Of a stretch of 64,000 nucleotides of DNA, positions 24,730 to 39,712 are shown piece after piece. Every line of letters begins with the position of its first letter. Position 1 is the first letter of the stretch. A program made the translations under genes and the position numbers. Origin of the DNA: Saprospirales bacterium (lineage in GTDB: Bacteria > Bacteroidota > Bacteroidia > Chitinophagales > Saprospiraceae); NCBI GenBank assembly GCA_007695035.1, contig REEO01000026.1:1-64000 (forward strand), in the 5' to 3' direction. The notes below the pieces were generated by a model. The model did not search any database. It saw only the letters and a program-made list of their open reading frames with translations, and was not told the origin of the DNA.

Positions 24730-25719
24730 TCAACCCAAAAGCCATTCTTTTTTCAAACGGGCAGCAGTTTTTTCAATCACCGATGCCGGGGCAAAGGCAT
24801 TGTCTATTGCGCAACAATTAAAGTGAAAAAAGTCAGCTTTGTCAAATGCCAGGGCGTGGTGTAGTTTATTCCATTCATCCGTCAGCGTCACATCGCTTAT
24901 CGCCCTGCCATCTGTATTCACACTCAGAGAAACTCCCTTGTCACGGAGCAATCGAATGCCATGGGATTCCATCCTGTCGTAGATGCCCGTGAGCAGGTTG
25001 CTGGTCGGGCAAACTTCGAGGTGGATCTGCTCTTTAAGAAGTCTTTTGACAGTTTTTTCACTCTCGAGAGACCGGACCCCGTGGCCGATGCGGTGGGGTT
25101 TAAATTGATCCAATACCTCTTCGACGCTTTCCGGTCCTCTGGCCTCACCCGCGTGACAGGTTCTGCGGATATCGTTCTCCAGGGCAAAGTCGAATGCAGA
25201 TTGGTGCGGCCCGGCATCCAGCAATTCATCACCCGCCAGATCGATTCCCACAACCCGGCTTCCCTTAAACTCCTCTGCAAGATGCGCCACTTTTAAACTG
25301 TCTTTAGGCTTATAAGGTCTGAGGCTGCAAAGGATCAAAAAAGCTTCTGTTTGGAATTCCCTGGATGCTTTTTCCACCGCTCTTTCTACGACCCGGACTA
25401 CATCTAATTCACTAAGGCTGCCATTACAGTGTTCCAGTGGAGCAAAACGCATTTCCCCGTAAATCACATTGTCCTCCGCAAATTGCCGGACGAGATCCCT
25501 GGAAGCTATCTCCAGGCCCTTCTTGCTCTGCATCAAATCAATTGCCGGCTTCGCATGAGCTATATAGGCCTTGAGGTCGGAACAGGACGGTGGGGCCACA
25601 AACAACTTCCTGTAGCTGTCCTCGCTAATGCCGGAATTCAACTGCCTGACAGCCCGATAACTCAGCGAGCAATCCAGATGGACGTGGAGCTCTATTTTAG
25701 GAAGTTTTTCGTATTTCAT
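24730..25719 (-). CDS. add: Adenosine deaminase
   Basis: A 329-residue zinc enzyme deaminating adenosine (or a related nucleoside) in purine salvage. Metal and catalytic motifs: HVHLD (11-15 of the chosen start, two His ligands), DLAGDE, CHAGE (third His and catalytic-Glu region), HRIGHGVRS and NTDGRAISD. Mammalian and E. coli enzymes have NTDDP at the last motif; here the second Asp is Gly, in the pattern NTD(N/G)R also seen in actinobacterial members, so the zinc Asp is retained. ATG at 25719 (MKYEKLPKIELHVHLD) places the metal motif at the normal distance; the longer frame adds 44 unrelated residues. Confidence 0.9.
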   Translation of the reverse strand: MKYEKLPKIELHVHLDCSLSYRAVRQLNSGISEDSYRKLFVAPPSCSDLKAYIAHAKPAIDLMQSKKGLEIASRDLVRQFAEDNVIYGEMRFAPLEHCNGSLSELDVVRVVERAVEKASREFQTEAFLILCSLRPYKPKDSLKVAHLAEEFKGSRVVGIDLAGDELLDAGPHQSAFDFALENDIRRTCHAGEARGPESVEEVLDQFKPHRIGHGVRSLESEKTVKRLLKEQIHLEVCPTSNLLTGIYDRMESHGIRLLRDKGVSLSVNTDGRAISDVTLTDEWNKLHHALAFDKADFFHFNCCAIDNAFAPASVIEKTAARLKKEWLLG

Positions 25720-25997
25720 AATTGCGCAGTGATATCCATATTCATTTACACCTTCCCCTTCAAGTGTAATTGGCCTGCTTAATGCTTGTATTTTCCCGGA
25801 AAAAACTAACCTGGGTAATCCCAATTTTGTCCGGGGAAGAAACAGAACCACAGCTTGCCCCTGCTCCTACAGGCTCGCAAACCTACTAACTTTCACGCAA
25901 TTCACGGGAAACATTCGAAATCAAACCCCCTGAAAGCCTTTATTTTTCAATCAGTCAGAGAGTTTTTGAAATGAATTTTTCTAAAATACTACCCTTC

Positions 25998-27503
25998 CTA
26001 AGTCCCACAAAATGTCTGATACCGATCATCCCAACCAACAGGCACCCGATTAAAATCTTTTTCTACCTGCTGATCGGAATAGGGGTCTTTCAGAACTTCC
26101 ATCAGGTGATTAAACTTGGTGAAGTTGGCTTTTAGTCCGGCATCCTCCAGTGCTTCTTCGACAAGATGGTTTCGCGGAATGTAATTTGGATTGGTTTTTT
26201 GCATGGACCGGAGGGCTGCATCTTTGCCCCTGGCTTCATTTTGGAGGCGGGTTTCCCATTGCTTTTTCCAGTTTTGGAATTTCTCGCCACTCCAGGGGGA
26301 CTCGTCAGCTACCTCACGGCCGCTGAGGTATCTGAAGGTATTGGTGTAATCTGCCTGTTCCTTTTCCATCCAATCCATCAATTCGGAGATCAGTTTTCCA
26401 TCTTCTTTGTCAGGATTGCTCAGACCCAGTTTTTGGCCCATCATTTTTAGCCATTTTTTGCGAAAGAGGGCCGGGAATCCGCTGAGCATATCGCGGGCAG
26501 ATTCCAGTGCGGTTTCTTGGTTTTCGCCCATGATCGGGAGCAGTGCACCGGCCAGGCAGCCCACATTCCACTGTGCGATTCCGGCTTGATTGGCAAATGA
26601 ATACCGTCCTTGTGTATCAATCGAGCTAAACACCGTTTTGGGGTGGTAGGCATTTATAAATGCGCAGGGTCCGTAATCAATGGTTTCGCCGGAAAGGGTT
26701 GTGTTGTCAGTATTCATTACGCCGTGTATAAAACCGACTCGCATCCAGTTGACCACCAAATCGGTCTGTTTTTCCATCACCTTTCTCACAAATTCGAGAA
26801 CCGTTTCGGGGTCAACTTCCAGTTTGTCGCCACGACTTGAGATCCCAGCTTCAAATTCTGGATAATGTCGTTGAACGGTGTATTGGAAGAAATTTTTCAG
26901 ATGATCCTCGTCCACAAACTGCCTGATGTATTCAAAAGTACCCACCCTGATGTGGCTGGACGAAATTCTTGTGAGAACAGCTCCGGGATGCATGCGCTCG
27001 CGCGGCACTTGTTCACCCGTCAGCGCAACTGCCAAACTACGCGAGCTGGGGATCTCGAGATGGTGCAGTGCTTCGCTGATGAGGTATTCTCGCAACATGG
27101 AGTAAAGCGTAGCCCGACCATCACCCATTCTGGAATAGGGCGTTCTGCCAGATCCTTTGAGTTGTACATCCACCCGCTTACCGGATGGGCATATTTGCTC
27201 CCCTAGCAAATGAGCCCTGCCATCGCCCAACATCGTAAAGTGTCCAAATTGGTGTCCTGCATATGCCTGTGCAATAGGTTTTGCCCCGGGTGGAATTGCA
27301 TTTCCTGAAAACACTTCAGCACCTTCCAATCCCTCTTTTTCGGACTTTCTCAAACCCATTTCCCTTGCCAGTTCTTCGTTGAAAAGAACCAATTCAGGGG
27401 CCTTCACTTCCTGAGGTTTTATTCGGGTAAAAAGTTTATCGTTCAGTCGGTTGTAGCTGTTGTCAAAATTCCAGCCGCTCACCTTTATATTTAACTTCTT
27501 CAT
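25998..27503 (-). CDS. selO: Protein adenylyltransferase SelO (YdiU family)
   Basis: A 501-residue pseudokinase-fold enzyme that transfers AMP from ATP to Ser/Thr/Tyr of target proteins, linked to redox stress. Seen: the start NFDNSYNRLNDKLFTRIKP, YAGHQFGHFTMLGDGRAHLLGE (shown here as AGHQFGHF and GDGRAHLLGE), QLKGSGRTPYSRMGDGRAT-type nucleotide loop, NWMRVGFIHGVMNTDN catalytic region and DYGPCAFINAY (metal-binding DYGP). The C-terminus ends YQTFCGT; the Cys takes the place where some members carry selenocysteine. ATG at 27503 is chosen because it begins at the conserved core; other in-frame ATGs lie upstream. Monocistronic. Confidence 0.93.
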   Translation of the reverse strand: MKKLNIKVSGWNFDNSYNRLNDKLFTRIKPQEVKAPELVLFNEELAREMGLRKSEKEGLEGAEVFSGNAIPPGAKPIAQAYAGHQFGHFTMLGDGRAHLLGEQICPSGKRVDVQLKGSGRTPYSRMGDGRATLYSMLREYLISEALHHLEIPSSRSLAVALTGEQVPRERMHPGAVLTRISSSHIRVGTFEYIRQFVDEDHLKNFFQYTVQRHYPEFEAGISSRGDKLEVDPETVLEFVRKVMEKQTDLVVNWMRVGFIHGVMNTDNTTLSGETIDYGPCAFINAYHPKTVFSSIDTQGRYSFANQAGIAQWNVGCLAGALLPIMGENQETALESARDMLSGFPALFRKKWLKMMGQKLGLSNPDKEDGKLISELMDWMEKEQADYTNTFRYLSGREVADESPWSGEKFQNWKKQWETRLQNEARGKDAALRSMQKTNPNYIPRNHLVEEALEDAGLKANFTKFNHLMEVLKDPYSDQQVEKDFNRVPVGWDDRYQTFCGT

Positions 27504-27822
27504 GATCTGCATTTTTTGATAGTTACTCAGGTTGGTAACCGCAGCGCCGGGCTTTCGTTCATGGGAAGGAAGGGAACCGGGTTTAAGTTTCGGCATTTGA
27601 CTTTGTCTCATGACGGAGGGATTAAACGGTGAGCACCCTATTTTTTTCTTACTGACAAATACATAAATGCATGCCCCTCATTACGATTAATTGATTTCGT
27701 TGGCAATCCCGCAAACAAATACCCAAGCTAAGGAAAATCAGTCTCCAAACACCCAATTCACTAATTGCCTCTCAAGACCCAAAACCCGACACTTCACCCG
27801 GCATTCGGATTTTGGGGACGAA

Positions 27823-27951
27823 ACGCAATGCATTGAGACTGCGGTTCGGGATTGTTGGTTGATTTGGGGTTAAATACGCACGGCAGTGCGTATCTACAGA
27901 TATTGAACATAAACCGGATTCGGCTGGAAAATACGCAATGCATTGAGACTG
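27823..27951. repeat. Cluster of three REP-like palindromic elements
   Basis: A 19-bp sequence ACGCAATGCATTGAGACTG occurs exactly twice, at 27823-27841 and 27933-27951, each holding the perfect palindrome CAATGCATTG. Between them ATACGCAC-ggca-GTGCGTAT (27874-27893) is a perfect 8-bp inverted repeat followed by CTACA. The shapes recall the (G)ACGCAATGCATTGCGTC and ACGCACGGC-GTGCGT palindromes that I remember as dispersed in Bacteroidota genomes. The surrounding 27504-28039 region has no convincing gene. Confidence 0.6.
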
Positions 27952-28039
27952 TTCTAAACTGTATTCTCCGTTCAATTCCGCATATTAAAATTCCCGATTT
28001 CAAAGGATTTCCCCATCTTTGCGTTTCAAAACAATCACA

Positions 28040-29596
28040 ATGAGCAATTCATTTAAAAATATAGTTGCACACAGCAAGGAATACGGCTACATCTTTCAAT
28101 CCAGCGAGATTTACGATGGGCTTTCAGCCACTTACGATTACGGTCCTTTGGGTGTGCTTTTGAAGAACAACATACGCGACTTTTGGTGGAAATCCATGGT
28201 GCAGTTGCACGACAATATATCCGGAATTGATGCCGCCATTTTTATGCATCCCAAAACATGGCAGGCAAGTGGTCACGTAGATGCTTTCAACGATCCGCTC
28301 ATCGATAACAAGGATTCAAAAAAGCGATACAGAGCGGACGTGCTGGTTGAGGACCACATTGAAAAAATTAAGGGGAAAATCGCCAAGGAGATAAAAAAGG
28401 CTACCAAACGCTTTGGTGACGATTTTGAGGAGGCAAAATTCCTCGCGGAACATCCCAGAGCCCAGCGATACCAAAAGGAAATAGAGCAGATTTCTGCTGA
28501 ACTGGCCCGCTGCATGACCGACAATGACCTGGAGGGATTGGGCAAACTCATCGAAGACCTCGGTATTCCTGATCCGGTTAGCGGATCGAGGAATTGGACA
28601 GAAGTCCGGCAGTTTAATCTCATGTTCTCGACTCAGTTGGGAACGGTGGCAGGCAAAGAAGCCAAACTCTACCTCAGACCCGAAACGGCTCAGGGGATTT
28701 TTGTCAACTTCCTCAACGTGGCCAACACGACCCGGGCCCGCATTCCATTTGGCATTGCACAAACCGGAAAAGCCTTTCGAAACGAAATCATTGCCCGACA
28801 GTTTATTTTCAGAATGCGGGAATTTGAGCAGATGGAAATGCAGTACTTTGTTCGGCCGGGGGATGAAATAAAGTGGTACGAGTATTGGAGGGAATTCAGA
28901 ATGAAGTGGCACCGCGCTCTGGGCACACCGGCGGAAAACCTTCGCTTTCACGAGCACGAGAGCCTGGCTCATTACGCCAATGCCGCGGTTGACATCGAAT
29001 TTGAGTTTCCCTTCGGATTCAAAGAACTGGAGGGTATCCACTCTCGCACAGATTACGATTTGGGCCGCCACCAGGAATTCTCCGGAAAAAAATTGCAGTA
29101 CTTCGACCATGAACTCAATGAGAGTTACGTGCCCTATGTGGTAGAAACTTCCATTGGACTGGACCGGATGTTTCTCGCCCTGCTTACTCAGGCTTACCAG
29201 GAGGACGAAGTGCCAGATGCCGGTGGCAAAGCGAGCATAAGGCTGGTCCTGAAATTGCACCCGGCCCTGGCACCCATAAAATGCGCAGTGCTACCCCTGG
29301 TCAAAAACAAGAAAGAGCTCACTGAAAAAGCCACCGAAATATTCAATGATCTCCGGTTTTCCTTTGACTGCCAGTACGATGAAAAAGACACTATCGGGAG
29401 AAGGTATCGCCGTCAGGATGCAATCGGCACACCCTATTGCGTCACGGTTGATTTTGAAACCCTTGAGGACAATCAGGTGACCATTAGAGAAAGAGACAGT
29501 CTGGAACAGCACAGAATTCCCATTTCAGAAGTGGAATCCGTGGTGCGTAAGCGTACATCAATGACCAATTTACTGCGTTCACTCAATGCAAAATAG
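28040..29596 (+). CDS. glyS: Glycine--tRNA ligase (single-chain, alpha2 type)
   Basis: A 518-residue class II aminoacyl-tRNA synthetase charging tRNA-Gly. Seen: N-terminal YIFQSSEIYDGLSATYDYGP (residues about 15-34, substrate pocket), motif 2 region FGIAQTGKAFRNE, FIFRMREFEQMEMQYF, ELEGIHSRTDYDLGRH, and motif 3 VETSIGLDRMFLALL; the C-terminal anticodon-binding domain follows (KCAVLPLVKNK to GTPYCVTVDF). This is the eukaryote/archaea-like single-polypeptide type also used by Bacteroidota, not the GlyQ/GlyS pair. ATG at 28040 gives the canonical start MSNSFKNIV. The metallophosphoesterase begins 17 bp later, probably in the same operon. Confidence 0.96.
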   Translation: MSNSFKNIVAHSKEYGYIFQSSEIYDGLSATYDYGPLGVLLKNNIRDFWWKSMVQLHDNISGIDAAIFMHPKTWQASGHVDAFNDPLIDNKDSKKRYRADVLVEDHIEKIKGKIAKEIKKATKRFGDDFEEAKFLAEHPRAQRYQKEIEQISAELARCMTDNDLEGLGKLIEDLGIPDPVSGSRNWTEVRQFNLMFSTQLGTVAGKEAKLYLRPETAQGIFVNFLNVANTTRARIPFGIAQTGKAFRNEIIARQFIFRMREFEQMEMQYFVRPGDEIKWYEYWREFRMKWHRALGTPAENLRFHEHESLAHYANAAVDIEFEFPFGFKELEGIHSRTDYDLGRHQEFSGKKLQYFDHELNESYVPYVVETSIGLDRMFLALLTQAYQEDEVPDAGGKASIRLVLKLHPALAPIKCAVLPLVKNKKELTEKATEIFNDLRFSFDCQYDEKDTIGRRYRRQDAIGTPYCVTVDFETLEDNQVTIRERDSLEQHRIPISEVESVVRKRTSMTNLLRSLNAK

Positions 29597-29613
29597 TTGT
29601 AAAATACCCGGAC

Positions 29614-30348
29614 ATGCTCATTACTTTGATTTCTGACCCCCACATTGCGCCTCCGGGCGAACATCCCTTTGGCGTGGATACGAGAGGACTTTTTGCCGGT
29701 GCACTTGAATTCCAAAGCCGTGAAAAGAGCGATCTGCTCATTATCACAGGTGATCTGAGTTACCGCGACGGGGATGAGTCGAGCTATAAGTGGATAAAAA
29801 AGCAACTGGATGACAACCAAACTCCCTACCGGATAATTGGTGGAAATCACGATGACAGTTCGGTCCTGGCCCGCACTTTTGCACTTGAGGATCACCTGCA
29901 CAACTCCATCGAACTTTACTACGAGGAAAAAATCCCCGGCCATCATCTCATTTGCCTGGACAGCTCTGTGGGCTCGCTCAGCAAATTGCAGTGGTCCTGG
30001 TTGGAGGAGAAGCTCACCAGCGAGAGGGAGTTGAAAAAACTGATTTTCATGCACCATCCTCCCACTGAGGCCGCGGCGCCTTATATGGATAAAAATCACG
30101 CCTTTAGGGAAATCGATAAATTCCGGAAGCTGGTCAAAAAATCCAACTGCAGACCGGCCGTCTTTTGTGGTCATTACCATCTTGAAAAATCACTCATCCT
30201 TCCAGAAATGGATGTTTTTATCTGCCCCTCCACCTTCTTTAATCTCGACGACAAATACAGGGATTTTAAAGTCCTGAACAACAAAGCCTGCTACCGGGGG
30301 GTGGAATTATCGGAGGAGATGTTGAGGACTTCCGTCTATTACCAATAG
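29614..30348 (+). CDS. Calcineurin-like metallophosphoesterase
   Basis: A 244-residue cytosolic dimetal phosphoesterase, related to cyclic-nucleotide phosphodiesterase CpdA/Icc. All metal motifs are in order: SDPH (7-10), TGDLSYRDGD (near 45), GGNHDD (75-80), MHHPP (near 145) and GHYHLE (near 182). The substrate is not deducible. It lies 17 bp behind glyS. Its last 37 codons recur in diverged form at 32680-32805, beyond the DUF1538 operon, with both stop codons aligned, which shows that this gene end was duplicated. Confidence 0.88.
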   Translation: MLITLISDPHIAPPGEHPFGVDTRGLFAGALEFQSREKSDLLIITGDLSYRDGDESSYKWIKKQLDDNQTPYRIIGGNHDDSSVLARTFALEDHLHNSIELYYEEKIPGHHLICLDSSVGSLSKLQWSWLEEKLTSERELKKLIFMHHPPTEAAAPYMDKNHAFREIDKFRKLVKKSNCRPAVFCGHYHLEKSLILPEMDVFICPSTFFNLDDKYRDFKVLNNKACYRGVELSEEMLRTSVYYQ

Positions 30349-30385
30349 ATCAGTCTAAAGGCTTTCTCCAACTACCGGACCTTTT

Positions 30386-30580
30386 TTAATCCATGCCACT
30401 CCCCAGGCGCTTCTTACGCATATTCTTGTATTTTTCCCACTGAAAAGCCCGGAGAAAATTCACTGGCCTTTTTGGTCCGTAACCCAATCTGCGTTTATCC
30501 AGTGCGTTAGACTGCGGCATTCCTGATGGAGAATCAAAAATTCATAATCGTTAGGCTGCCGGGGATGTATTCGGAGGTGA
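30386..30580 (-). pseudogene. Decayed copy of the patatin gene 3' end
   Basis: Minus-strand codons upstream of the stop at 30388-30386 read GPKRPVNFLRAFQWEKYKNM followed by RKKRLGSGMD. This matches the patatin C-terminal segment beginning GAKRAVEFLRDFDWQDYKNM at about 21 of 30 positions. Bases from about 30219 to 30480 align without gaps to 32676-32937 (constant offset 2457). Further right, after a deletion of about 90 bp, ATCAAAAATTCATAATCGTTA still matches the patatin gene. A premature stop and the deletion make it a remnant. Confidence 0.75.
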
Positions 30581-30784
30581 AGGACTTGAAGAACAGGGGA
30601 ATGTAATTTTTTCTTCAGTTTCCCCTCTGCAATTCACCCTAAACGCTATCTTTACTCAGAACTTTAACCAATGGAATGACTATCCATTAGGTCACACTCA
30701 GATTTTAATCGACTATTTGCTAACCTTACAAAACCAGTATCTATCGGACATAAGCTCGAAAAATCGGTAACCATCAAAGAATTG

Positions 30785-31534
30785 ATGTCAAGGGTCATTG
30801 CATTGCTATACCTGGCGATAAAGAAACTACGGGTGGCTTTGGTGGATGTGTTGCCAATTATCATTGTAATCGGATTTTTTCAGGTGGCAGTTATACAGCA
30901 ACCCATACCTGAATTTGGAAGTATCATTGTAGGCAGCATCTTTGTTGTAGTCGGCTTGATGCTTTTTGTTGAAGGGCTGAATATAGGACTATTCCCCATT
31001 GGGGAGACCATGGCCAATTCCCTGACAAGAAGAGGTAGTTTATTCTGGTTGTTGACATTTGCCTTTGCCCTGGGGTTTTCTACCACTGTGGCTGAACCGG
31101 CATTAATTGCAGTGGCTGCTGAGGCAGGTCGCATCGCAGCGGAAGGTGGGTTAATTCAAGGGGATTCTTCATCAATTGATCGCTACGCTTTGGGCATGAG
31201 GTTGACGGTTGCTTTTTCAGTTGGTTTTGCCATCCTGATAGGTGTTCTGAGGATATTATTGGGTTGGCCGATATACTATCTTATTATTGGTGGTTATATC
31301 TGCGTTATCGCGGTTACCTTCTTTGCTCCTGATGAAATTATTGGGATCGCTTACGATGTGGGCGGGGTAACAACATCCACCATAACGGTTCCCCTCGTGA
31401 CAGCCCTGGGGGTTGGTTTGGCCAAAACAATCAAAGGCAGAAAACCACTGACCGAAGGTTTCGGACTCATCGCTTTTGCCTCTTTGACACCGATGATATT
31501 TGTGATGATTTACGGATTAATCTATTTTAGCTGA
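30785..31534 (+). CDS. DUF1538 membrane protein, first copy
   Basis: A 249-residue integral membrane protein with about six hydrophobic segments (for example VDVLPIIIVIGFFQVAVI, IIVGSIFVVVGLMLFVEGL, FAILIGVLRILLG). Conserved points shared with the second copy are TTVAEPALIAVA (100-111), GGVTTSTITVP (193-203) and GFGLIAFASL (225-234). Polar, Gly/Thr-rich motifs inside membrane segments suggest a transport path. DUF1538 has no established function. The ATG at 30785 follows a TTG; a weak TATCTTTA promoter-like site lies at 30647-30654. Its stop TGA shares one base with the next ATG, so translation is coupled. Confidence 0.85.
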   Translation: MSRVIALLYLAIKKLRVALVDVLPIIIVIGFFQVAVIQQPIPEFGSIIVGSIFVVVGLMLFVEGLNIGLFPIGETMANSLTRRGSLFWLLTFAFALGFSTTVAEPALIAVAAEAGRIAAEGGLIQGDSSSIDRYALGMRLTVAFSVGFAILIGVLRILLGWPIYYLIIGGYICVIAVTFFAPDEIIGIAYDVGGVTTSTITVPLVTALGVGLAKTIKGRKPLTEGFGLIAFASLTPMIFVMIYGLIYFS

Positions 31535-32307
31535 TGACACCACTCCCTAATCAGTTGGGCGATGTATTGGTATCCACCATCTGGGATGTGACTCCTATTT
31601 TGGTGCTCATTGTGTTTTATCAGATTGTGGTATTAAAAAAGCCAATCCCAAACCTCAAAAGGGTAATCATCGGCAGTATTTATGTGGTCATAGGTTTGGC
31701 TTTTTTTCTACTCGGACTGGAAAAAGCACTGTTTCCGGTAGGTCAAATGATGGGAGCGCAGTTGAGCAGTCCTGAATTTCTGAGTATAGATGCTGATGCA
31801 GCAATTGACTGGAGGAATTACTACTGGATTTATATTTTCGCGGCAGCTATTGGCTTTGCCACCACCATTGCAGAACCATCTCTGATAGCTGTAGCCATAA
31901 AAGCCAATCAAGTCTCAGGTGGCTCAATCACCAATTGGGGTCTTAGAATAACTGTTGCACTCGGGGTTGCCTTTGCCCTGGCCCTGGGTACTTACAGAAT
32001 TGTCAGCGGCACTCCGCTACATCTTTATATAACTGCGGGCTACGCGCTCGTAATTTTACAAACCATTTTTGCCCCAAAGGATTTGGTCGCTTTGGCTTAT
32101 GATTCCGGTGGGGTGACCACCTCCACTGTTACCGTGCCTATAGTTGCTGCCCTCGGACTTGGACTCGCTGATGTATTACCGGGGAGAAATCCGGCTATTG
32201 ATGGATTTGGCTTAATTGCCTTTGCCAGCCTTTTCCCCATCGTAGCTGTGCTTGCTTATGCGCAAATCAAGTATTTTATTTCCAAATCTAAAAAGAGAAA
32301 AATATGA
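31534..32307 (+). CDS. DUF1538 membrane protein, second copy
   Basis: A 257-residue paralogue of the preceding protein with the same motifs: TTIAEPSLIAVA (110-121), GGVTTSTVTVP (192-202), GFGLIAFASL (224-233), and a basic C-terminal tail SKSKKRKI that probably faces the cytoplasm. The two copies are likely halves of one complex, since they overlap by a single base and are of equal length. No signal peptide is needed; insertion would be through the first helix PILVLIVFYQIVVL. The PII-like gene overlaps its end by 4 bp (ATGA), which ties the signalling protein to these membrane partners. The substrate is unknown. Confidence 0.85.
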   Translation: MTPLPNQLGDVLVSTIWDVTPILVLIVFYQIVVLKKPIPNLKRVIIGSIYVVIGLAFFLLGLEKALFPVGQMMGAQLSSPEFLSIDADAAIDWRNYYWIYIFAAAIGFATTIAEPSLIAVAIKANQVSGGSITNWGLRITVALGVAFALALGTYRIVSGTPLHLYITAGYALVILQTIFAPKDLVALAYDSGGVTTSTVTVPIVAALGLGLADVLPGRNPAIDGFGLIAFASLFPIVAVLAYAQIKYFISKSKKRKI

Positions 32308-32645
32308 AATTTCAACTGCTTTTGGCCGCCGTCAATCCCCAATTAACTTATGAAATTATTGATAAAGCCAAAGAGCTGGGAGCTACCGGTGCCACAATTA
32401 TTCCCGGTCGCGGCATTGGAGGAGAGGATAAAAAAACCTTTTTTGGTCTTACTATCGAGGGCGAGACTGATGTCATTCTCTTTGTGGTAGAAGAGCGTAT
32501 TGCTTCCTCAATAATTAAAGCGCTTGATGAGTATCCTAAATTTCAAGCCTCAGAAGCCGGCATTGCTTTTTCGGTTCCCATTGATCAAATTGCAGGTATT
32601 CAAAGTCAGTTTAAAAAGTTTAAGGAGGCGGTTAAAAAGAAATAG
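32304..32645 (+). CDS. PII-like signalling protein with shortened T-loop
   Basis: A 113-residue ferredoxin-like-fold protein of the PII/GlnB superfamily. The beta-alpha-beta pattern LLLAAVNPQLTYEIIDKAKE - GATGATIIPGRGIG - DVILFVVEERIASSIIKAL is typical. The T-loop is short (GGEDKKTFFGLTIEGE) and has no equivalent of the uridylylated Tyr51, and the C-terminal segment ASEAGIAFSVPIDQI replaces the TGxxGDGK nucleotide-binding loop of GlnB. It should therefore not sense ATP/2-oxoglutarate in the usual way. Translational coupling to two DUF1538 genes suggests it gates or monitors that transporter, as GlnK does for AmtB; this is inference. Confidence 0.8.
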   Translation: MKFQLLLAAVNPQLTYEIIDKAKELGATGATIIPGRGIGGEDKKTFFGLTIEGETDVILFVVEERIASSIIKALDEYPKFQASEAGIAFSVPIDQIAGIQSQFKKFKEAVKKK

Positions 32646-32679
32646 CCTGAATACCGCAGTGGCACAACATAAACCTTCT

Positions 32680-32805
32680 GTCTTTTACTACTTTCTCAAT
32701 CTCGATGAACATTCCAGGGATTTTAAGGTGCTGAACAACAGATTCTGTTGCCGACGGATAGAACTATCAAAGGGGATGTTGAGGACTTCCATTTACTGTC
32801 TGTAG
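32680..32805 (+). pseudogene. Decayed copy of the metallophosphoesterase 3' end
   Basis: The frame reads FLNLDEHSRDFKVLNN, then C, ELSKGMLRTSIYCL and a stop, matching the intact gene's FFNLDDKYRDFKVLNN ... ELSEEMLRTSVYYQ at about 23 of 37 residues with both stops aligned. The DNA aligns without gaps to 30223-30348 at a constant offset of 2457. No start codon or catalytic part is present. Confidence 0.75.
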
Positions 32806-32806
32806 G

Positions 32807-34111
32807 TCATGCGAGAGGCTCATTCCTCCTGTCGGATGTTTCCTCATCAATACCACTGTCCAGACGTTTTTTGCGCATATTCTTGTAATCTTGCCAATCA
32901 AAATCGCGGAGAAACTCCACTGCCCTTTTTGCCCCCAGTACAAAGAGCTTGATTTTCTCCTCTTCTCCCATATTGAAATCCAACCAGTGGAATTTTTTCT
33001 CCCCATTTTCGTCGGTAACCGCATCGGCATTAATTCGGCCCACGAGACTCTCATATTCTGGATTGCGGATCAAAAAGTCGTAATCGTTAAACTGTCGCAT
33101 CGTACTGATGAGGGAACCGGCCAAACTGCCGAGGTTTTTATTATTGGAGTAATTTTCACGGAAAGTACTCAATCGCACTCCAAAGGTGGGTCGACCGGGT
33201 ACGCGGTCTCTCAGATGAAAAACATCGATGGGGAAATTGGACAACATGCCACCATCGGCGAATTTCACCGACTTCGGTATCGATCCTTTATAGCCCGCAT
33301 ATTGCTCCCATTTTTCCTCCAGTCCAAGCCTGTCACCATCCAGGCTGTCAGGGATGTTTTCGAGGGTGAATGGTTTGAAAAAGAGGGGAATGGACATAGA
33401 GGCCCGCACAAATTCAGCGGGATCTACGGACTCCGGTTCCTTCCAGTAAAGCGACGCCATCTGGGGGAACATAACCTTGGTAGCTGTGGTAATGTCAGAA
33501 GCTATGATACAGAATTCCGGTTTGTCGCGGAAGGGAATTTTTTCTTCACCCTCTCCAAGCCGGTAAATGCCATTGGGTATTTCAGCGCGTGCCTGCATGA
33601 GATCAGAAAGGGTTTCGATCCCATTTTCCCTGAGGTAATGTGCAAACCAATTCTGAAAAGTGTCTCCTTTGTGCAGACCTAAATTCCTGCTCAGATAGGC
33701 AAGCGACCTTGAAAGGGGAACTGCAAGCCAAAATCTTGACCTGCCCGCCATTATGCGGTTGACCAAACGCTTGCTGTAAGCCGGACCATCCATAAATGAC
33801 TTCATATCCACCTCAGTGACCATTTGCAGTATCTTGTCTGCCCTGGTCTCGTCAATTCTCCCGGCCGCCGCCATCGCCACGGTATTAATGGCACCGGCAG
33901 AGGTGCCCGCCAGGTTCAAAAAGCGAATGTTGCACTGCTCCAAAACCCAGGTGTATCCAACCAGGGCAACCCCGAGTACACCACCGCCCTCCTGCACAAA
34001 ATCTACATACTCGCGTCCTTCCCCATCCCGAATATCCGAATAATTTTTCTGTCGCAAAACTTCAATTTCTTGAATAACTATTTCCGGTATTGCATTTAAA
34101 TAAGCATCCAT
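32807..34111 (-). CDS. Patatin-like phospholipase
   Basis: A 434-residue serine acyl hydrolase of the patatin family (lipase/phospholipase A). The oxyanion hole is EGGGVLGVAL (GGG at 42-44), the nucleophile Ser71 is in GTSAGAIN (69-76) and the catalytic Asp is in ADGGMLSNFP (DGG near 290). This Ser-Asp dyad is complete. There is no signal peptide, so a cytosolic role in lipid remodelling is possible. Its C-terminal coding end is duplicated as a remnant at 30386-30580. The M19-type gene lies upstream on the same strand. Confidence 0.9.
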   Translation of the reverse strand: MDAYLNAIPEIVIQEIEVLRQKNYSDIRDGEGREYVDFVQEGGGVLGVALVGYTWVLEQCNIRFLNLAGTSAGAINTVAMAAAGRIDETRADKILQMVTEVDMKSFMDGPAYSKRLVNRIMAGRSRFWLAVPLSRSLAYLSRNLGLHKGDTFQNWFAHYLRENGIETLSDLMQARAEIPNGIYRLGEGEEKIPFRDKPEFCIIASDITTATKVMFPQMASLYWKEPESVDPAEFVRASMSIPLFFKPFTLENIPDSLDGDRLGLEEKWEQYAGYKGSIPKSVKFADGGMLSNFPIDVFHLRDRVPGRPTFGVRLSTFRENYSNNKNLGSLAGSLISTMRQFNDYDFLIRNPEYESLVGRINADAVTDENGEKKFHWLDFNMGEEEKIKLFVLGAKRAVEFLRDFDWQDYKNMRKKRLDSGIDEETSDRRNEPLA

Positions 34112-34180
34112 AAATCAGGTTTTATAGTTTGAAAATCGGCTTTTTAGTATAAAAGATGTCAAATACCACTTAGAATCACT

Positions 34181-35737
34181 TTAGGCCCTCTCCAACAAGA
34201 ATTCATCACTGAAAAACCGTCGCAAAAATTGCAACACATTGCCGTTGCAAAGTTTTTCAGTGAGTTCTTCCGGGTCTTTACCAAACATGAATTTTCGCAC
34301 ATCACTTGCGGGCATTTCTATTCCCTTCAGGTCAAAAGGCCTGTAAAAAAACTGTTTGATGTGAATGGGAAAATCCACCAGTTTACGGTAATTCTCGTAG
34401 GGGAAAAGCGGCTCGATCACTCCGTCCATATCCGTACCCAGGGCCAGACAATCCCAGGCCTCCGGTCGATCCGCTGCCCTGACGAATTGAAATACATTGC
34501 TCATTATCAGCTCCACAGCAGCATCTCTTTGTTCATCCTGATTTCTTGCTCTTTTCAGCTGCCTTTTGGCCCTGCCACCCGGCAATCTACCCCCGTGAAA
34601 AACAATTCCGGCCAGCCCCCCGGATTGAACGATAATTCGCGCCTCCTCATCGCTGGAATTTATGACTTGTCGGCTGAGATAATGCCGTCTGAATGCCCTT
34701 CTGCTGTCGGGTTTAAGTGACTCCCCCAAAGTTTTGTACCCATTGAGGGCTGCATGGCTTGCGATGACCGGCATCTCAAATCCCCTATCCCAGTACCTCT
34801 CTTTCAGCAGGGAAAAATACTCTATCCTCGTCTTTACACTCATGTGTTTGATGTCAATGAGCACCCGCCTGCCGTTGGTTCCCGACAAAAGCAAGTCCAG
34901 CACATCCCTGCCCAACTTGCTGATACCCTCATTCAGGCCGTTGCGCTGGTCGAGGAGAGCAGCCATACCGGGGCCGATTCCACCTTCCGGAAAGCTGCGA
35001 GAATGGCCCGCCAGCAAATTGCTGAAATGATGGCAAAAAGTGATGAAAAAAGGCGTGTGCCTACCCTGACCCCACTTTTTCATATGAGCTATATTCCTAT
35101 CAAAGTGTGGCAGTAGCCTCAAGTGTATTTCCTCCCGGTCCGCATCTTTTACCGGTCGCCAAAAATCCTCCACCTCCTCGTAATTCCCTAGAGAATGGGC
35201 GCCCTCCACAGTAAGTATATTAGCGATGGTGTTCCCGGCTTCAAAAGCGTGCTCAAACTCCTCATGGTCACCTGCAATCACCACGCGCTCATCAGAGGCC
35301 TCTTCCATCAAAAACTGGTATTCGGGCAGCAGCTCTTCAGTGTAGTAATCGATACCCAGCCTTTCGCGAACCCGCTTGAATATTTTATCTACCTTTTCCA
35401 GGTCAAATCCCGTAATACAGGATGCAAAGCGCTCCAGATGGCGATCCAGAAGCATCATTTTCAGAAGAAAGTGGCGGGGTTTGGGGTCGAAAAAGTTGCG
35501 CTCTACCGGCCCCAATGCCAAAAATATACCGCGAACATCAGCCTCAGTGGCCTGGTCAAAATTTGCCTGAGATGTCTTTTTGATATCGCTAACTGCTGAT
35601 CTGAGAAGGAAATTGAGGTCATCGCAAGCAGGCCTGCCGGTGTACTCCTCCCAAAGCCCTTTTCTCTGTTGCCTGGGACTCACTGCATTAAGAGGTTTCA
35701 ACTGGGGGTGCGCATGCAGATCAACAATCGGAAACAT
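34181..35737 (-). CDS. Membrane dipeptidase family (M19) metallohydrolase
   Basis: A 518-residue amidohydrolase-superfamily protein resembling renal dipeptidase. Metal-site motifs: DLHAHPQ (6-12, HxH), LTVEGAHSLG (Glu ligand), LIDIKHMSV (His), ASHAALNG (His) and LGTDMDGVIEP (Asp). The protein is longer than classical members (about 350-400) owing to insertions between the motifs, for example KDADREEIHLRLLPHFDRN. It has no signal peptide. The dipeptide, or other, substrate is not known. It is divergently transcribed from the KamA-family gene and is followed by patatin after 69 bp. Confidence 0.8.
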   Translation of the reverse strand: MFPIVDLHAHPQLKPLNAVSPRQQRKGLWEEYTGRPACDDLNFLLRSAVSDIKKTSQANFDQATEADVRGIFLALGPVERNFFDPKPRHFLLKMMLLDRHLERFASCITGFDLEKVDKIFKRVRERLGIDYYTEELLPEYQFLMEEASDERVVIAGDHEEFEHAFEAGNTIANILTVEGAHSLGNYEEVEDFWRPVKDADREEIHLRLLPHFDRNIAHMKKWGQGRHTPFFITFCHHFSNLLAGHSRSFPEGGIGPGMAALLDQRNGLNEGISKLGRDVLDLLLSGTNGRRVLIDIKHMSVKTRIEYFSLLKERYWDRGFEMPVIASHAALNGYKTLGESLKPDSRRAFRRHYLSRQVINSSDEEARIIVQSGGLAGIVFHGGRLPGGRAKRQLKRARNQDEQRDAAVELIMSNVFQFVRAADRPEAWDCLALGTDMDGVIEPLFPYENYRKLVDFPIHIKQFFYRPFDLKGIEMPASDVRKFMFGKDPEELTEKLCNGNVLQFLRRFFSDEFLLERA

Positions 35738-36060
35738 GGTTAATTTGGTTTAGATTGGCTATTATCAAACACAAAATATTGTTAGACAGCCAAATTTACT
35801 TTATTTGTTCTGAAAAACCAAATATTTTACAATATTTTCACAAAAAGATTATATGCCTGGCGGTCAGATATAAGCTGAGGGAAAAAATTTACACAAGTTT
35901 TATACTGCAACTAACAAGATCTTGAAGGTAATATGTACCAAACTGACAACCATGGCCTTGGACTCAAATTCAACACTGAAAATTAATTTCAGCAGTGTAG
36001 AAATCAGCTGATTCGGGGTATTGAAGTTTTTTCCTTGCCATATTTTTCCCTAACTTAGCG
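35738..36060. other. AT-rich divergent intergenic region
   Basis: Lies between the divergent M19 gene and the structured leader of the KamA-family gene. It holds an imperfect inverted repeat ACACTGAAA ... TTTCAGCAGTGT at 35973-35999 that could be an operator. No coding sequence seen. Confidence 0.4.
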
Positions 36061-36183
36061 ACCCCGGAATTTTCAGCTCCCGGGATCAGAGGGGAGGCAT
36101 GGAGCAGGAAAGCGGCCCTGCAGGCGCAAGTACTACTCACTTTCACAAGATGGTTCAGTGACTTATGACAAGAGTCCACACTG
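36061..36183 (+). ncRNA. Candidate structured 5' leader of the KamA-family gene
   Basis: A GC-rich block in an AT-rich gap directly before the gene. Possible stems: CCGG/CCGG around 36063-36082, CTCCC with GGGGAG (36077-36096), GCAGG-aaagcggc-CCTGC (about 36105-36122) and AGAGG-tattg-CCTCT (about 36194-36208). A TAACTTAG that may serve as a -7 element lies just 5' (about 36051-36058). I do not match it to a known riboswitch consensus. Confidence 0.35.
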
Positions 36184-36249
36184 TTGAAGGGCAGAGGTAT
36201 TGCCTCTCGGGAACTAAAAAGATTACAAATTACTCAAAAAGAGAAAACT

Positions 36250-37596
36250 ATGGATACAATGCGTTACAAGGTTTATACTCAGACTAATTTCAGAAAGATG
36301 CCGCAAATGGCTATGCTCACCGAAGAGCAGAAGTTTGACATCGAAGTGGTGGCATCTGTTTTACCATTCAAAAGCAATAACTACGTTACGGATAACCTCA
36401 TTGATTGGGGCAATGTACCGGATGACCCCATGTTCAGGCTCACCTTCCCTCAGCGCGAAATGTTAAAGGACGAACACTACAATGAAATAGCCAATGCGCT
36501 CCGCTGTGGGAAGAACAAAATGGAGATAAAGGAAATAGCCAATCGCATACGGATGTCTCTAAACCCACATCCGGCCGGGCAAAAGTGCAACATACCGGAA
36601 CTCGACGGTGAGGAGTTGAAGGGAATTCAGCACAAGTACAGGGAAACGGCGCTGTTTTTTCCGAGCAATGGACAAACCTGTCACGCATATTGTACTTTTT
36701 GCTTCAGGTGGCCTCAATTCGTTGGAATAAACGAGTGGAAGTTTGCCATGAAAGAGACCAATTTGCTCGTGAGTTATCTTCGAAACAACCCACAGATAAC
36801 GGATGTGCTCTTTACCGGTGGAGACCCCATGATCATGAAAGCCTCTGCGCTTGAAGTCTATATAAATGGTCTGTTGGAGGCCAATCTCCCCAATCTCAAG
36901 ACCATACGAATTGGCTCGAAAGCCCTCGGTTTTTGGCCTTATAAATTCTTGACCGATAAGGATGCCGACGAGACCCTTCGCCTGTTCGAAAAAGTGGTGA
37001 AAAGCGGCGTCAATCTATCTTTCATGGCCCATTTCAGCCATCCGGTTGAACTCTCAACTCCCGCTGTTCAGGAAGCCATTGTGAAAATTCGCAATACGGG
37101 GGCTCAAATAAGGACCCAATCCCCTCTGCTTCGCCATATCAACGACGACGCCGACACCTGGGCAGAAATGTGGCGCGCACAATTGGACAACAACTGCATA
37201 CCCTATTATATGTTTGTGGAAAGAGATACCGGAGCACAGGAGTACTTTTCAGTCCCACTCGTGGATGCCTGGAAAATTTTCCAAAATGCTTATCAACAGG
37301 TAAGCGGTATTTGCAGAACAGTCAGAGGGCCGAGTATGTCGAGCACCCCGGGGAAAGTCCATATTTTGGGCGTACAGGACATTCCGCTCAACGGCAAGTC
37401 CGAAAAGGTTTTTGTGCTTCAGTTTATTCAGGGTAGAAATCCGGACTGGGTCTGCAAGCCCTTTTTCGCCAAATACGACGAAAATGCTACCTGGTTGAAC
37501 GACCTCAAGCCGGCTTTTGGCCAAAAGGAGTTCTTCTATGAAAGAGAACTCAATGAAATTCTCGACACAGAACCCGAATTGGTAAGGGCTGAATAA
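36250..37596 (+). CDS. KamA-family radical SAM enzyme (lysine 2,3-aminomutase-like)
   Basis: A 448-residue radical S-adenosylmethionine enzyme. The [4Fe-4S]-binding CxxxCxxC is CHAYCTFC, preceded by FPSNGQT and followed by FTGGDPM, the GGE-like SAM motif of aminomutases. A PLP-Lys is likely in the late segment STPGKVHILGVQ, which aligns with the GGGK region of lysine 2,3-aminomutase. The C-terminus (about 380-448) differs from clostridial KamA, so the substrate may be another amino acid. The ATG at 36250 (MDTMRYKVYTQ) is chosen; an upstream in-frame ATG at 36184 would lie inside the structured leader. DUF1643 follows after 32 bp. Confidence 0.85.
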   Translation: MDTMRYKVYTQTNFRKMPQMAMLTEEQKFDIEVVASVLPFKSNNYVTDNLIDWGNVPDDPMFRLTFPQREMLKDEHYNEIANALRCGKNKMEIKEIANRIRMSLNPHPAGQKCNIPELDGEELKGIQHKYRETALFFPSNGQTCHAYCTFCFRWPQFVGINEWKFAMKETNLLVSYLRNNPQITDVLFTGGDPMIMKASALEVYINGLLEANLPNLKTIRIGSKALGFWPYKFLTDKDADETLRLFEKVVKSGVNLSFMAHFSHPVELSTPAVQEAIVKIRNTGAQIRTQSPLLRHINDDADTWAEMWRAQLDNNCIPYYMFVERDTGAQEYFSVPLVDAWKIFQNAYQQVSGICRTVRGPSMSSTPGKVHILGVQDIPLNGKSEKVFVLQFIQGRNPDWVCKPFFAKYDENATWLNDLKPAFGQKEFFYERELNEILDTEPELVRAE

Positions 37597-37628
37597 ATAA
37601 CTGCCGGCCGGGACCTTAGCAAACATCT

Positions 37629-38168
37629 ATGAAAATCCAAAAATCAAACTGGCTGTGCCAAACAGACCTGAAGAACAGGGTGAGGTTTTTTCTCGGTGAA
37701 AACGGTCCTGAACCACTGATATGCATTGGTGTGAATCCGAGTACTGCGGGCCTTGATGAGCTGGATCCCACTATGCGCGCTGTTAAAAGGCACTCCCTCC
37801 AGAAGAATTACAGTGGATGGATCATGTTAAACCTCTACCCTCAGCGCGCCACAGACCCCAACCGCATTCACAAACGCATAAATCGCGAATTGCACCGGCA
37901 AAATCTCCTGCAAATAGGCCACATTTTGGAACAATATCCTCATGCACCTGTATGGGCAGCTTGGGGAAATCTCATTGAAAAACGATCCTTTCTTATTCCC
38001 TGCCTAAGGGATATTCTCCACCAAACCGATATTTTATCCAATGAATGGATTTGCATGGGCGACCTCACCAAAGCCGGTCACCCCAGACACCCACTTTACC
38101 TGCCAAAATCGGCTTCTGTAAACAGCTTTTATCCCACTCAGTACATTCGTGGGCAACTTCCAAGCTGA
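37629..38168 (+). CDS. DUF1643 family protein
   Basis: A 179-residue protein with the DUF1643 signature ICIGVNPSTAG (32-42), LDPTMRAVKR, GWIMLNLYPQRATDP and the late MGDLTKAGHPRHPLYLPK. The family is found in phages and bacteria and has no defined activity; its NPSTA and conserved His-Pro motifs suggest a nucleotide- or base-related function. Only 32 bp from the KamA-family gene, so possibly cotranscribed. Confidence 0.85.
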   Translation: MKIQKSNWLCQTDLKNRVRFFLGENGPEPLICIGVNPSTAGLDELDPTMRAVKRHSLQKNYSGWIMLNLYPQRATDPNRIHKRINRELHRQNLLQIGHILEQYPHAPVWAAWGNLIEKRSFLIPCLRDILHQTDILSNEWICMGDLTKAGHPRHPLYLPKSASVNSFYPTQYIRGQLPS

Positions 38169-38538
38169 AAATTAGGCAGAGAATGAGTTGAAAGTATGGG
38201 AAGTACAAAGTTTGGAAATTATAAAATTGATAATGCCCGCCCCCACCATCCCTCAATGCTTTGGGGGGTGGATCAAGACAAAAAGTAAGTGAGATCGAAT
38301 TGGAAACTGTTACAATTATACCGGGCAAGAATTATGATTAGATTAAGAAGAACATTTTATGGGTCATTACAGGGTTTAGTAGCTATAAATGTATCAATCT
38401 ATGCACTAATTTTTAGTATTTAGTCATATACTAACTGCGGAACATAAGTTACATTTGTGAAAACCCGGTCAGTGATTCAAAAACAGGCCTTGCACGGGAA
38501 GACATTTATAACGAGTAAGCCAGAAAAAACCATGATTT
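38169..38538. other. Intergenic region without recognised features
   Basis: About 370 bp. A GC-rich imperfect hairpin (CCACC ... GGTGG, about 38246-38274) without a T run is the only notable structure. No coding sequence supported. Confidence 0.4.
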
Positions 38539-39078
38539 ATGATCGACAAAAACAAATTGCACGAGCAAATTACGTTCACTCAGGGTGATATAACAAAACA
38601 GGCGGATATTGAGGCGATTGTCAATGCTGCGAATTCTCAATTGCGAACCGGTGGAGGAGTGGCCGGAGCTATCCACAAGGCTGCCGGACCACAGTTGGAG
38701 CGAGAATGCTTGCCACTGGCACCCATTGAGCCCGGAGAGGCGGTTATCACGGGAGCTTACAATTTGCCCAACCAAAATGTAATCCACTCCCTGGGGCCTG
38801 TGTACGGCAAGGATAAACCCGAAGCGGAAATACTGACGGATTGCTACCGGAATGCTCTGATACTGGCAGATGAGAATGGGCTGAAGTCCATTGCATTTCC
38901 GGCAATTTCCACCGGAATATTCGGATATCCCATTGAGGAAGCTACGCCAATAGCACTAAAAACCACAGCAGAGCTCCTAACCTCATTGAAAAATATCGAG
39001 GAAGTGCGGTTTGTCCTTTTCAGCAAAAGCGACCTCAATATCTACCGGGAAATCTGGTCTGAAATGACGATCAAATAA
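38539..39078 (+). CDS. Macro-domain ADP-ribose hydrolase (O-acetyl-ADP-ribose deacetylase, YmdB/MacroD type)
   Basis: A 179-residue stand-alone macro domain. Motifs: GDITKQADIEAIVNAANSQL (16-35, the Asn of NAAN is catalytic in MacroD), GGGVAGAIHKAAG (38-50, ADP-ribose loop) and FPAISTGIFGYPIEEA (substrate loop GIFGYP). Such enzymes remove ADP-ribose from acidic residues or deacetylate O-acetyl-ADP-ribose. It follows a 370-bp gap and is convergent with gldD (6-bp gap). Confidence 0.93.
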   Translation: MIDKNKLHEQITFTQGDITKQADIEAIVNAANSQLRTGGGVAGAIHKAAGPQLERECLPLAPIEPGEAVITGAYNLPNQNVIHSLGPVYGKDKPEAEILTDCYRNALILADENGLKSIAFPAISTGIFGYPIEEATPIALKTTAELLTSLKNIEEVRFVLFSKSDLNIYREIWSEMTIK

Positions 39079-39084
39079 AAGGTT

Positions 39085-39690
39085 CTACTCCTCCCACTCA
39101 AAAGATCCAATCGCATGTGCCACATCCACTTTTAAAAACTCAATGACGGGAGCAAGGGAGTCGGGGCGGACACTGGTATTGAAGTAGAGGGCTCCCCGTA
39201 AAAAGTGATTGGTGGTATCTGTGAGGTAAAAATGCATAGGCGAAGCCGCGTGGCCTTCAAATTCCATGATTATACCACCCACGTTACCGCGTGACACTAC
39301 GAATTCATCCATGAAGTCAGACCGCTTGTTGATCTGGTTGGCGATTTTGTAGGCATCGGTGATGAATTTATCGTAATCTGTGCGCGAGGTAATAGGATAG
39401 TAACTCATGTACAAGCGCGCATCAAAATCCTTAAAGACGATGTCAAACCAGCATGGGTGGCCGGGTTCTTCACCGAAAAACCGCTCCACCTCTTCGATTT
39501 CTGCATAAACGGGATATTCAAAAGAAAATGGACAGACATCCATTTGAAACTCCTGATAGGCTTTATCGGGATAATCCACCCTGGGAAAAATCCGCGGTTT
39601 GGGATTGTCCACATCATCATCTCCACAGGCGGGCAGGAAAAAAAGCAGTGGCACGATAAGCACCAACAGAAATACGGGAAATCGTTTCAT
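39085..39690 (-). CDS. gldD: Gliding motility lipoprotein GldD
   Basis: A 201-residue lipoprotein with signal LVLIVPLLFFLPAC (lipobox LPAC), then a GldD core: FPRVDYPDKAYQEF, CPFSFEYPVYAEI, CWFDIVFKDFDARLYMSYYP, VGGIIMEFEGHAASPMHFYLTD and NTSVRPDSLAPVIEFLK. GldD is required for gliding motility and type IX secretion in Flavobacterium. The order mutY-ssb-gldE-gldD seen here is the conserved Bacteroidota arrangement. It lies 22 bp downstream of gldE, so it is the last gene of that operon. Confidence 0.95.
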   Translation of the reverse strand: MKRFPVFLLVLIVPLLFFLPACGDDDVDNPKPRIFPRVDYPDKAYQEFQMDVCPFSFEYPVYAEIEEVERFFGEEPGHPCWFDIVFKDFDARLYMSYYPITSRTDYDKFITDAYKIANQINKRSDFMDEFVVSRGNVGGIIMEFEGHAASPMHFYLTDTTNHFLRGALYFNTSVRPDSLAPVIEFLKVDVAHAIGSFEWEE

Positions 39691-39712
39691 AGTTTCAAAA
39701 TCTGAACCAAAA

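What the first reader, a model, noticed from the sequence alone, without database searches (positions are those of the whole stretch)
30219..33110. DUF1538-PII operon inserted between diverged direct repeats of its own flanking gene ends
The last part of the metallophosphoesterase gene and the adjoining 3' end of the patatin gene occur twice. Left arm about 30219-30580 (intact phosphoesterase end, decayed patatin end); right arm about 32676-33110 (decayed phosphoesterase end, intact patatin end). About 260 bp align without gaps at a constant offset of 2457. The three-gene DUF1538-DUF1538-PII operon fills the space between. This is the footprint expected of single-crossover integration of a circular DNA carrying a homologous segment, or of a tandem duplication with later loss. 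The substantial divergence of the arms means the event is old or the donor was a relative.
Basis: partly seen in the sequence, partly recalled or inferred. Interest (0 to 1): 0.75.

Follow-up and report, generated by a model that had tools for sequence, protein, structure and literature searches.

The report
Fossil duplication beside antiporter-PII operon
A stretch of chromosome was probably duplicated long ago in a Saprospiraceae bacterium and each copy lost complementary parts, so a putative sodium/proton-antiporter operon now sits between two gene stumps: unusually legible, but ordinary genome decay.

Summary
The repeat is real: 30234-30474 matches 32691-32931 at offset 2457 (241 nt, 73%, no gap). 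The left patatin stump continues in three more collinear blocks to 30617, separated by three deletions. Codon-position patterns in two species indicate that the left phosphoesterase and right patatin are functional and the other two ends are pseudogenes. A congener (G003) has the whole arrangement with the same deletions; a second (G002) has its left half, to its contig end. The event therefore predates the G000-G003 split. I found no empty site, no single phosphoesterase-patatin junction (1.5-kb flanks, as a rule) and no mobile gene between the arms. In a more distant congener (G004) the start of a homologous operon lies head-to-head with the homologue of the dipeptidase that flanks patatin here. 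I therefore favour a local tandem duplication with complementary loss over integration of a foreign circle. That step is inferred: the predicted dipeptidase and second-operon remnants were not found, and the operon is less diverged between the two species than its flanks. The operon is a UmpAB-like (DUF1538) cation/proton antiporter pair plus a PII-like protein. A PII-like reading frame directly follows DUF1538 in 21 of 21 loci examined.

The parts
29614..30348 (+). intact calcineurin-like metallophosphoesterase (MPE), 244 aa; its 3' end is the left copy of the repeat
   Evidence: Pfam PF00149; left-left differences between G000 and G003 in the last 111 nt fall 4,1,11 on codon positions 1,2,3
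30221..30617 (.). left arm of the repeat: MPE 3' end plus decayed patatin 3' part
30349..30617 (-). patatin pseudogene remnant, pieces of patatin from about residue 240 (188 if the weak last block counts) to 434, with three internal deletions; aligned without gaps to G003's remnant; G002 lacks a further stretch of about 195 bp
30618..30781 (.). spacer before the operon, no detectable homologue (predicted place of a dipeptidase remnant, not found)
30782..31534 (+). DUF1538 gene 1, UmpA-like antiporter subunit
   Evidence: PF07556 E 8.9e-68; NCBIfam UmpA E 7.1e-102, below the curated cut-off
31534..32307 (+). DUF1538 gene 2, UmpB-like antiporter subunit
   Evidence: PF07556 E 4.2e-69; NCBIfam UmpB E 2.2e-92, below the curated cut-off
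32304..32645 (+). PII-like signal protein, 113 aa
   Evidence: PF00543 E 6.9e-7; AlphaFold2 model pLDDT 80, best PDB match PII-like TTHA0516 2cz4
32677..32931 (.). right arm of the repeat over its nearly ungapped part: MPE remnant plus intact patatin 3' end (the patatin side corresponds to the left remnant up to about 33548)
32691..32805 (+). MPE pseudogene remnant (last ~38 codons)
   Evidence: 64% aa identity to MPE residues 207-242; right-right differences G000-G003 spread 7,8,10 over codon positions
32807..34111 (-). intact patatin-like phospholipase, 434 aa
   Evidence: PF01734; last 126 nt right-right differences 8,2,16
34181..35737 (-). peptidase M19-type dipeptidase; its homologue in G004 lies head-to-head with a DUF1538 gene
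   Evidence: PF01244; G004:C112

Best explanation
This is the fossil of an old local tandem duplication followed by complementary loss. Proposed ancestral order: MPE> <patatin <dipeptidase DUF1538a> DUF1538b> PII>. A segment from the 3' end of MPE to just past PII was duplicated in tandem. The first copy then lost most of patatin and its dipeptidase; the second kept patatin and dipeptidase and lost its operon, and had only an MPE tail from the start. What remains is MPE>, patatin stump, operon, MPE stump, <patatin, <dipeptidase. One event explains both the direct repeats and the changed gene order. Shown: the repeat, the complementary decay, the deletions, and the same structure in G003. Inferred: the ancestral order, that the operon was inside the duplicated unit, and where the duplication ended. 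The operon most likely encodes a UmpAB-type Na+(Li+,K+)/H+ antiporter controlled by its PII-like protein; this is inferred from homology and gene neighbourhood.
For: Repeat far above chance. Functional copies: differences at positions 1+2 vs 3 are 15 vs 27; stumps: 23 vs 12; Fisher p 0.012. G003 has the whole arrangement on two contigs that overlap by 121 identical bases around the end of PII; the left remnants of G000 and G003 align without gaps and match patatin in the same first three blocks. G002 has MPE, a shorter remnant and the operon up to its contig end. In G004 the start of a DUF1538a homologue lies head-to-head with the dipeptidase homologue; all 15 tblastx matches (E 1e-5) between the 64-kb window and those 12 kb lie in these two genes or the paralogous DUF1538b. 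G004's DUF1538a fragment is 66-68% identical to the G000/G002/G003 proteins, which are 48-55% identical to four other close homologues. The three genes between the arms match no phage family.
Against: No dipeptidase remnant in 30618-30781 and no operon remnant in 35738-36183, by blastn, tblastn and nhmmer. No unduplicated MPE-patatin junction seen. Patatin was not found in G004, and G004's MPE is followed by another gene, so the ancestral order is not observed as a whole anywhere. G004's DUF1538a fragment (100 aa, contig end) is also 66% identical to G545, and its branch to the window's clade has support 0.76 only. Operon genes are less diverged between G000 and G003 (fourfold sites 46 of 309) than seven flanking genes (303 of 1103, p 3e-6), so the middle may have a partly separate later history. 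Operon GC3 is lower (45, 42, 35% vs mean 50.7, sd 4.3 of 36 long window ORFs), compatible with foreign origin at some time. The codon-position counts are small and not independent.
Confidence: 0.55

Rival explanations
1. Tandem duplication of MPE-patatin alone, with the operon arriving between the copies by a separate later event.
For: Operon has lower GC3 and lower fourfold divergence between G000 and G003 than each of seven flanking genes. DUF1538 is patchy: 9 of 395 class genomes, 5 of 100 relatives, own genome included in both. No operon or dipeptidase remnants where the favoured model predicts them.
Against: Needs two events at one place. Does not explain why the dipeptidase is the operon's neighbour in G004 and close to it here.
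Confidence: 0.25
2. Single-crossover integration of a circular DNA that carried a homologous MPE-patatin segment plus the operon.
For: Topologically gives the same two arms; if the circle were an excised chromosomal segment it would be indistinguishable from the favoured model. Distant DUF1538 genes occur on 7 plasmid records; both records opened have a PII gene beside them, one of them near IS66 transposase genes.
Against: No PHROG match for the three genes between the arms, no similar DNA in the plasmid collection, no empty site found. In the MPE tree the stumps are not far outside the functional copies (internal branch 0.07, support 64 only), so a distant donor is not indicated.
Confidence: 0.12
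3. The arms are kept by selection, for example as a bidirectional terminator between convergent genes or as a regulatory leader for the operon, not neutral debris.
For: The left patatin remnant differs at only 20 of 269 sites between G000 and G003, against 303 of 1103 fourfold sites of flanking genes and 17 of 65 in the patatin-dipeptidase spacer.
Against: The two longest ordinary spacers show similar divergence (34 of 446 and 43 of 405); G002 lacks about 195 bp of the remnant; the right stump differs at 25 of 111; terminator-like sites are not above chance; no Rfam match in 25000-40000 at E 0.1.
Confidence: 0.05

Closest known systems
Tandem duplication-random loss (TDRL) rearrangement
   Same: Direct repeats of gene ends, complementary decay, changed gene order
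   Different: The eight papers listed by one phrase search (with 'bacteri' as second term) are mitochondrial work, judged from titles and abstract starts. [quoted passage not shown] Here the full ancestral order is not observed, so membership is inferred
Campbell-type single-crossover integration
   Same: Direct repeats flanking an insert
   Different: No mobile genes seen, no empty site or donor found
UmpAB Na+(Li+,K+)/H+ antiporter of Halomonas zhaodongensis (PMC5484666; abstract and passages seen)
   Same: Adjacent paralogous DUF1538 genes, UmpA-like then UmpB-like
   Different: Both NCBIfam scores are below the curated cut-offs; here a PII-like gene follows; the terms PII, P-II and nitrogen regulatory have 0 occurrences in that paper's main text
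PII-like transporter regulators such as SbtB (with SbtA)
   Same: PII fold, gene beside a membrane transporter; Foldseek lists SbtB, CPII and an SbtA-SbtB complex chain
   Different: Partner is a DUF1538 pair; ligand unknown; closest fold match is TTHA0516 (2cz4). That SbtB regulates SbtA is recalled

Membership tests
Tandem duplication-random loss | Direct repeat of a contiguous segment | tested here: met
Tandem duplication-random loss | Complementary functional/pseudogene copies | tested here: met
   p 0.012 on small, not independent counts; truncation of the stumps is direct
Tandem duplication-random loss | Ancestral single-copy order seen in an outgroup | tested here: inconclusive
   dipeptidase-operon linkage seen in G004; single MPE-patatin junction not found in 28 patatin loci (22 genes) and 27 MPE loci
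Tandem duplication-random loss | Remnants of every lost gene (would be strong support; old remnants may vanish) | tested here: not met
   no dipeptidase or second-operon remnant; I therefore say it works like TDRL and do not file it as a proven case
Campbell-type integration | Empty site in a relative | tested here: not met
   different next genes after MPE in G001, G004, G005, G006
Campbell-type integration | Mobile-element genes in the insert | tested here: not met
UmpAB antiporter (DUF1538) | Two adjacent DUF1538 proteins, one nearest UmpA and one nearest UmpB | tested here: met
UmpAB antiporter (DUF1538) | Scores above NCBIfam UmpA/UmpB cut-offs | tested here: not met
   339.8 vs 490 and 309 vs 500 bits; so UmpAB-like, not filed as UmpAB
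UmpAB antiporter (DUF1538) | Cation/proton antiport activity | not testable with these tools
   needs assay
PII superfamily | PII fold | tested here: met
   Pfam; model and Foldseek (one loop, residues 38-43, below pLDDT 50)
PII superfamily | Ligand binding and trimer | not testable with these tools
   needs biochemistry

The most novel reading that the evidence does not exclude
The antiporter-PII segment is younger than the genes around it: after G000 and G003 separated, the patatin-stump-plus-operon block was exchanged between these close species by homologous recombination through the flanking MPE and patatin copies, so that a decayed duplication served as a portable homology frame for a putative salt/alkali-tolerance operon.
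Probability: 0.2. Interest if true: 0.5.

Novelty: new member of a known kind. Interest (0 to 1): 0.33.

Why it matters
It is a readable example of how bacterial gene order can change through duplication and complementary loss, with both stumps preserved in two species, and it warns against reading every repeat-flanked operon as an imported element. The side result may matter more: DUF1538 antiporter genes were followed by a PII-like reading frame in each of the 21 loci examined, which suggests that this antiporter family is regulated by PII-like proteins and can be tested directly.

Tried and rejected
Rejected as chance: shuffles and random-piece controls. Looked for a dipeptidase remnant before the operon and an operon remnant between dipeptidase and the KamA-like gene by blastn, tblastn and nhmmer: nothing; the weak tblastn rows (E about 0.05-10) were treated as noise, except the G002 patatin remnant (E 3e-5). 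Looked for RNA families, promoters/terminators, tRNAs, plasmid DNA relatives and phage families (only the phosphoesterase matched, two phosphoesterase families): nothing relevant. Searched G000-G007 for PII: only G000 and G003. Searched six congeners for the KamA-like gene: only G002, at a contig end. Trees of the short repeat parts: support 43-64 for MPE, 99 for the four patatin ends. Wider stretches around four patatin genes of other genera (G022 twice, G013, G021) hold no MPE. The PDB sequence search with the UmpB-like protein found only chance designed-protein hits. Paper searches. The patatin's weak NCBIfam hit to a secretion effector (27.9 vs cut-off 1000) was not followed.
Full report
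OBSERVATION. The last part of the metallophosphoesterase gene (MPE, 29614-30348) and the 3' end of the patatin gene (32807-34111, minus strand) do occur twice around a three-gene operon. The ungapped core is 30234-30474 against 32691-32931, 241 nt, 73%, spacing 2457; blastn gives 30241-30474 against 32698-32931, E 2.3e-37. The local alignment score is 652 against mean 131, sd 17.6, max 187 in 100 shuffles, and at most 241 against 300 random pieces of the same window. The left patatin remnant goes on to 30617 in three more collinear pieces that correspond to 33003-33097, 33342-33392 and 33529-33548 (the last piece, E 0.013, is weak by itself). Neighbouring pieces overlap by 8, 9 and 6 nt on the left, as deletions between short direct repeats would leave, though the repeats are imperfect today.

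WHICH COPY LIVES. In the last 111 nt of MPE the left copies of G000 (this genome) and G003 differ at codon positions 1,2,3 by 4,1,11, the right copies by 7,8,10. In the last 126 nt of patatin the right copies differ by 8,2,16, the left by 4,4,2. Pooled, the functional copies have 15 vs 27 and the remnants 23 vs 12 differences at positions 1+2 vs 3, p 0.012. So the decay is complementary: left MPE and right patatin look alive, left patatin and right MPE look like debris. Numbers are small and sites are not independent, so this is moderate evidence; that the stumps are truncated is direct. G003's MPE stump is about as close to G000's MPE (84.7%) as G003's own MPE end is (85.6%), so the two copies cannot have been far apart when the species separated.

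RELATIVES. Eight genomes of the genus were returned (G000-G007); the family, Saprospiraceae, is taken from the title of a record identical to G003's contig C32 over the 9,526 bases held (SKLY01000109.1). That the isolate name points to a soda-lake sediment is recalled, not from a call. G003 has MPE, patatin remnant, both DUF1538 genes and PII on contig C151, and PII end, MPE remnant, patatin and dipeptidase on C32; the contigs share 121 identical bases at the junction. G002 has MPE, a shorter remnant, the first DUF1538 gene with one in-frame stop, and the start of the second, then the contig ends. G001, G004, G005 and G006 have glycyl-tRNA synthetase then MPE; their next genes encode 245, 411, 602 and 411 aa and show no similarity to each other, and neither patatin nor DUF1538 lies in the stretch held. 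G007 showed no MPE; a patatin end lies at one of its contig ends. Patatin matched at E 1e-20 in 21 of 298 family genomes, only G000 and G003 above 50% identity. None of 28 patatin loci (22 distinct genes, six loci being second pieces) contains MPE, and none of 27 MPE loci contains patatin. These loci carry 1.5 kb or less on each side as a rule; the own, G002 and G003 loci were left out, and four further MPE matches had no locus and were not examined. So no empty site was found. The event predates the split of G000 and G003, whose genes here outside the operon are 87.6-93.1% identical in DNA.

WHERE THE OPERON CAME FROM. In G004 the first 100 codons of a DUF1538a homologue stand at the end of contig C112, head-to-head with the homologue of the dipeptidase that flanks patatin in the window. 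All 15 tblastx matches at E 1e-5 between the window and the 12 kb fetched there lie in these genes or in the paralogous DUF1538b. The G004 fragment is 66-68% identical to the G000/G002/G003 proteins, which are 48-55% identical to four other close homologues over the same columns; but it is also 66% identical to G545, and the branch joining it to the window's clade has support 0.76. The operon and the dipeptidase were thus probably neighbours before the duplication. A tandem duplication of MPE tail-patatin-dipeptidase-operon, with loss of most of patatin and the dipeptidase from the first copy and of the operon from the second, gives the present order and both stumps in one event. The predicted remnants of the first dipeptidase (30618-30781) and of the second operon (35738-36183) were sought and not found, and patatin was not found in G004. 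The model is therefore favoured, not proved.

A COMPLICATION. At fourfold sites G000 and G003 differ at 46 of 309 in the operon and 303 of 1103 in seven flanking genes (p 3e-6). By the patatin remnant differs at 20 of 269, the spacer before the operon at 17 of 164, the MPE remnant at 25 of 111 and the PII-MPE-stump spacer at 10 of 49. The other spacers differ at 34 of 446 (dipeptidase-KamA), 43 of 405 (SelO-glycyl-tRNA synthetase), 17 of 65 (patatin-dipeptidase), 5 of 32 and 3 of 17. Either the middle block was exchanged between the two species after they split, or it is more constrained. Operon GC3 is lower than the window mean. I cannot decide between these.

THE OPERON. The two DUF1538 proteins are nearest NCBIfam UmpA (E 7.1e-102) and UmpB (E 2.2e-92), both below the curated cut-offs. 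UmpAB of Halomonas zhaodongensis is a two-component Na+(Li+,K+)/H+ antiporter (PMC5484666, abstract and passages seen); UmpAB homologues were also noted in some cable bacteria from salt water (PMC10030654, passages seen). The third protein is PII-like by Pfam (E 6.9e-7) and by fold: AlphaFold2 model from eight sequences, pLDDT 80, pTM 0.68, best PDB match TTHA0516 (E 7.6e-7, TM 0.61 on the query), with GlnK, CPII and SbtB further down. A PII profile found PII-like reading frames directly 3' of the DUF1538 genes in 21 of 21 loci examined (19 genomes including G000 and G003, and 2 plasmid records). Nine of these supplied the profile's rows and match by construction; 12 are independent. Left out: G002 and G004 (cut by contig ends), G967 and G897 (below the Pfam cut-off), and 5 of 7 plasmid records not opened. 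My paper searches (DUF1538, UmpAB and PII terms) showed no paper describing this association, but nearly all papers were seen only as listings, and subscription journals are mostly not held.

VERDICT. It is best read as an old local duplication with complementary decay, not as a demonstrated insertion. It is of a known kind and of modest interest; the antiporter-PII linkage deserves separate follow-up.

Noticed in passing
30782-32645 and loci L106-L125, L128-L136, L142, L143: A PII-like reading frame directly follows the DUF1538 (UmpAB-like) genes in 21 of 21 loci examined: one, two or three PII domains.
   Followed up: partly
L109:2294-3415 and corresponding frames in L110, L111, L112, L113, L136: Six loci have three PII-like domains in one frame of 372-395 codons beside DUF1538; in L109 both DUF1538 domains are in one 631-aa protein. 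Since PII proteins are usually trimers (recalled), this looks like a single-chain pseudo-trimer; in G412 (L112) the outer domains are weak (E 0.08 and 0.05).
   Followed up: partly
L003:2070-2819 (G002): The first DUF1538 gene of congener G002 has one in-frame stop at codon 184; draft-assembly error or pseudogene.
   Followed up: no
30782-32645: Each of the three operon genes is less diverged at fourfold sites between G000 and G003 (0.11, 0.20, 0.13) than each of seven flanking genes (0.25-0.30).
   Followed up: partly
downstream of MPE in G001, G004, G005, G006 (L059, L056, L058, L060): The gene after glycyl-tRNA synthetase-MPE differs in each of these four congeners, so this boundary looks rearrangement-prone.
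   Followed up: partly
36184-37596: KamA-like radical SAM protein without a Pfam hit and below the NCBIfam cut-offs it matches; present in G003, and among six other congeners searched found only in G002.
   Followed up: no
L142 (Methylocystis rosea plasmid): A DUF1538 pair plus P-II gene lies on a mobilizable plasmid near IS66 transposase genes, so such operons can travel.
   Followed up: no
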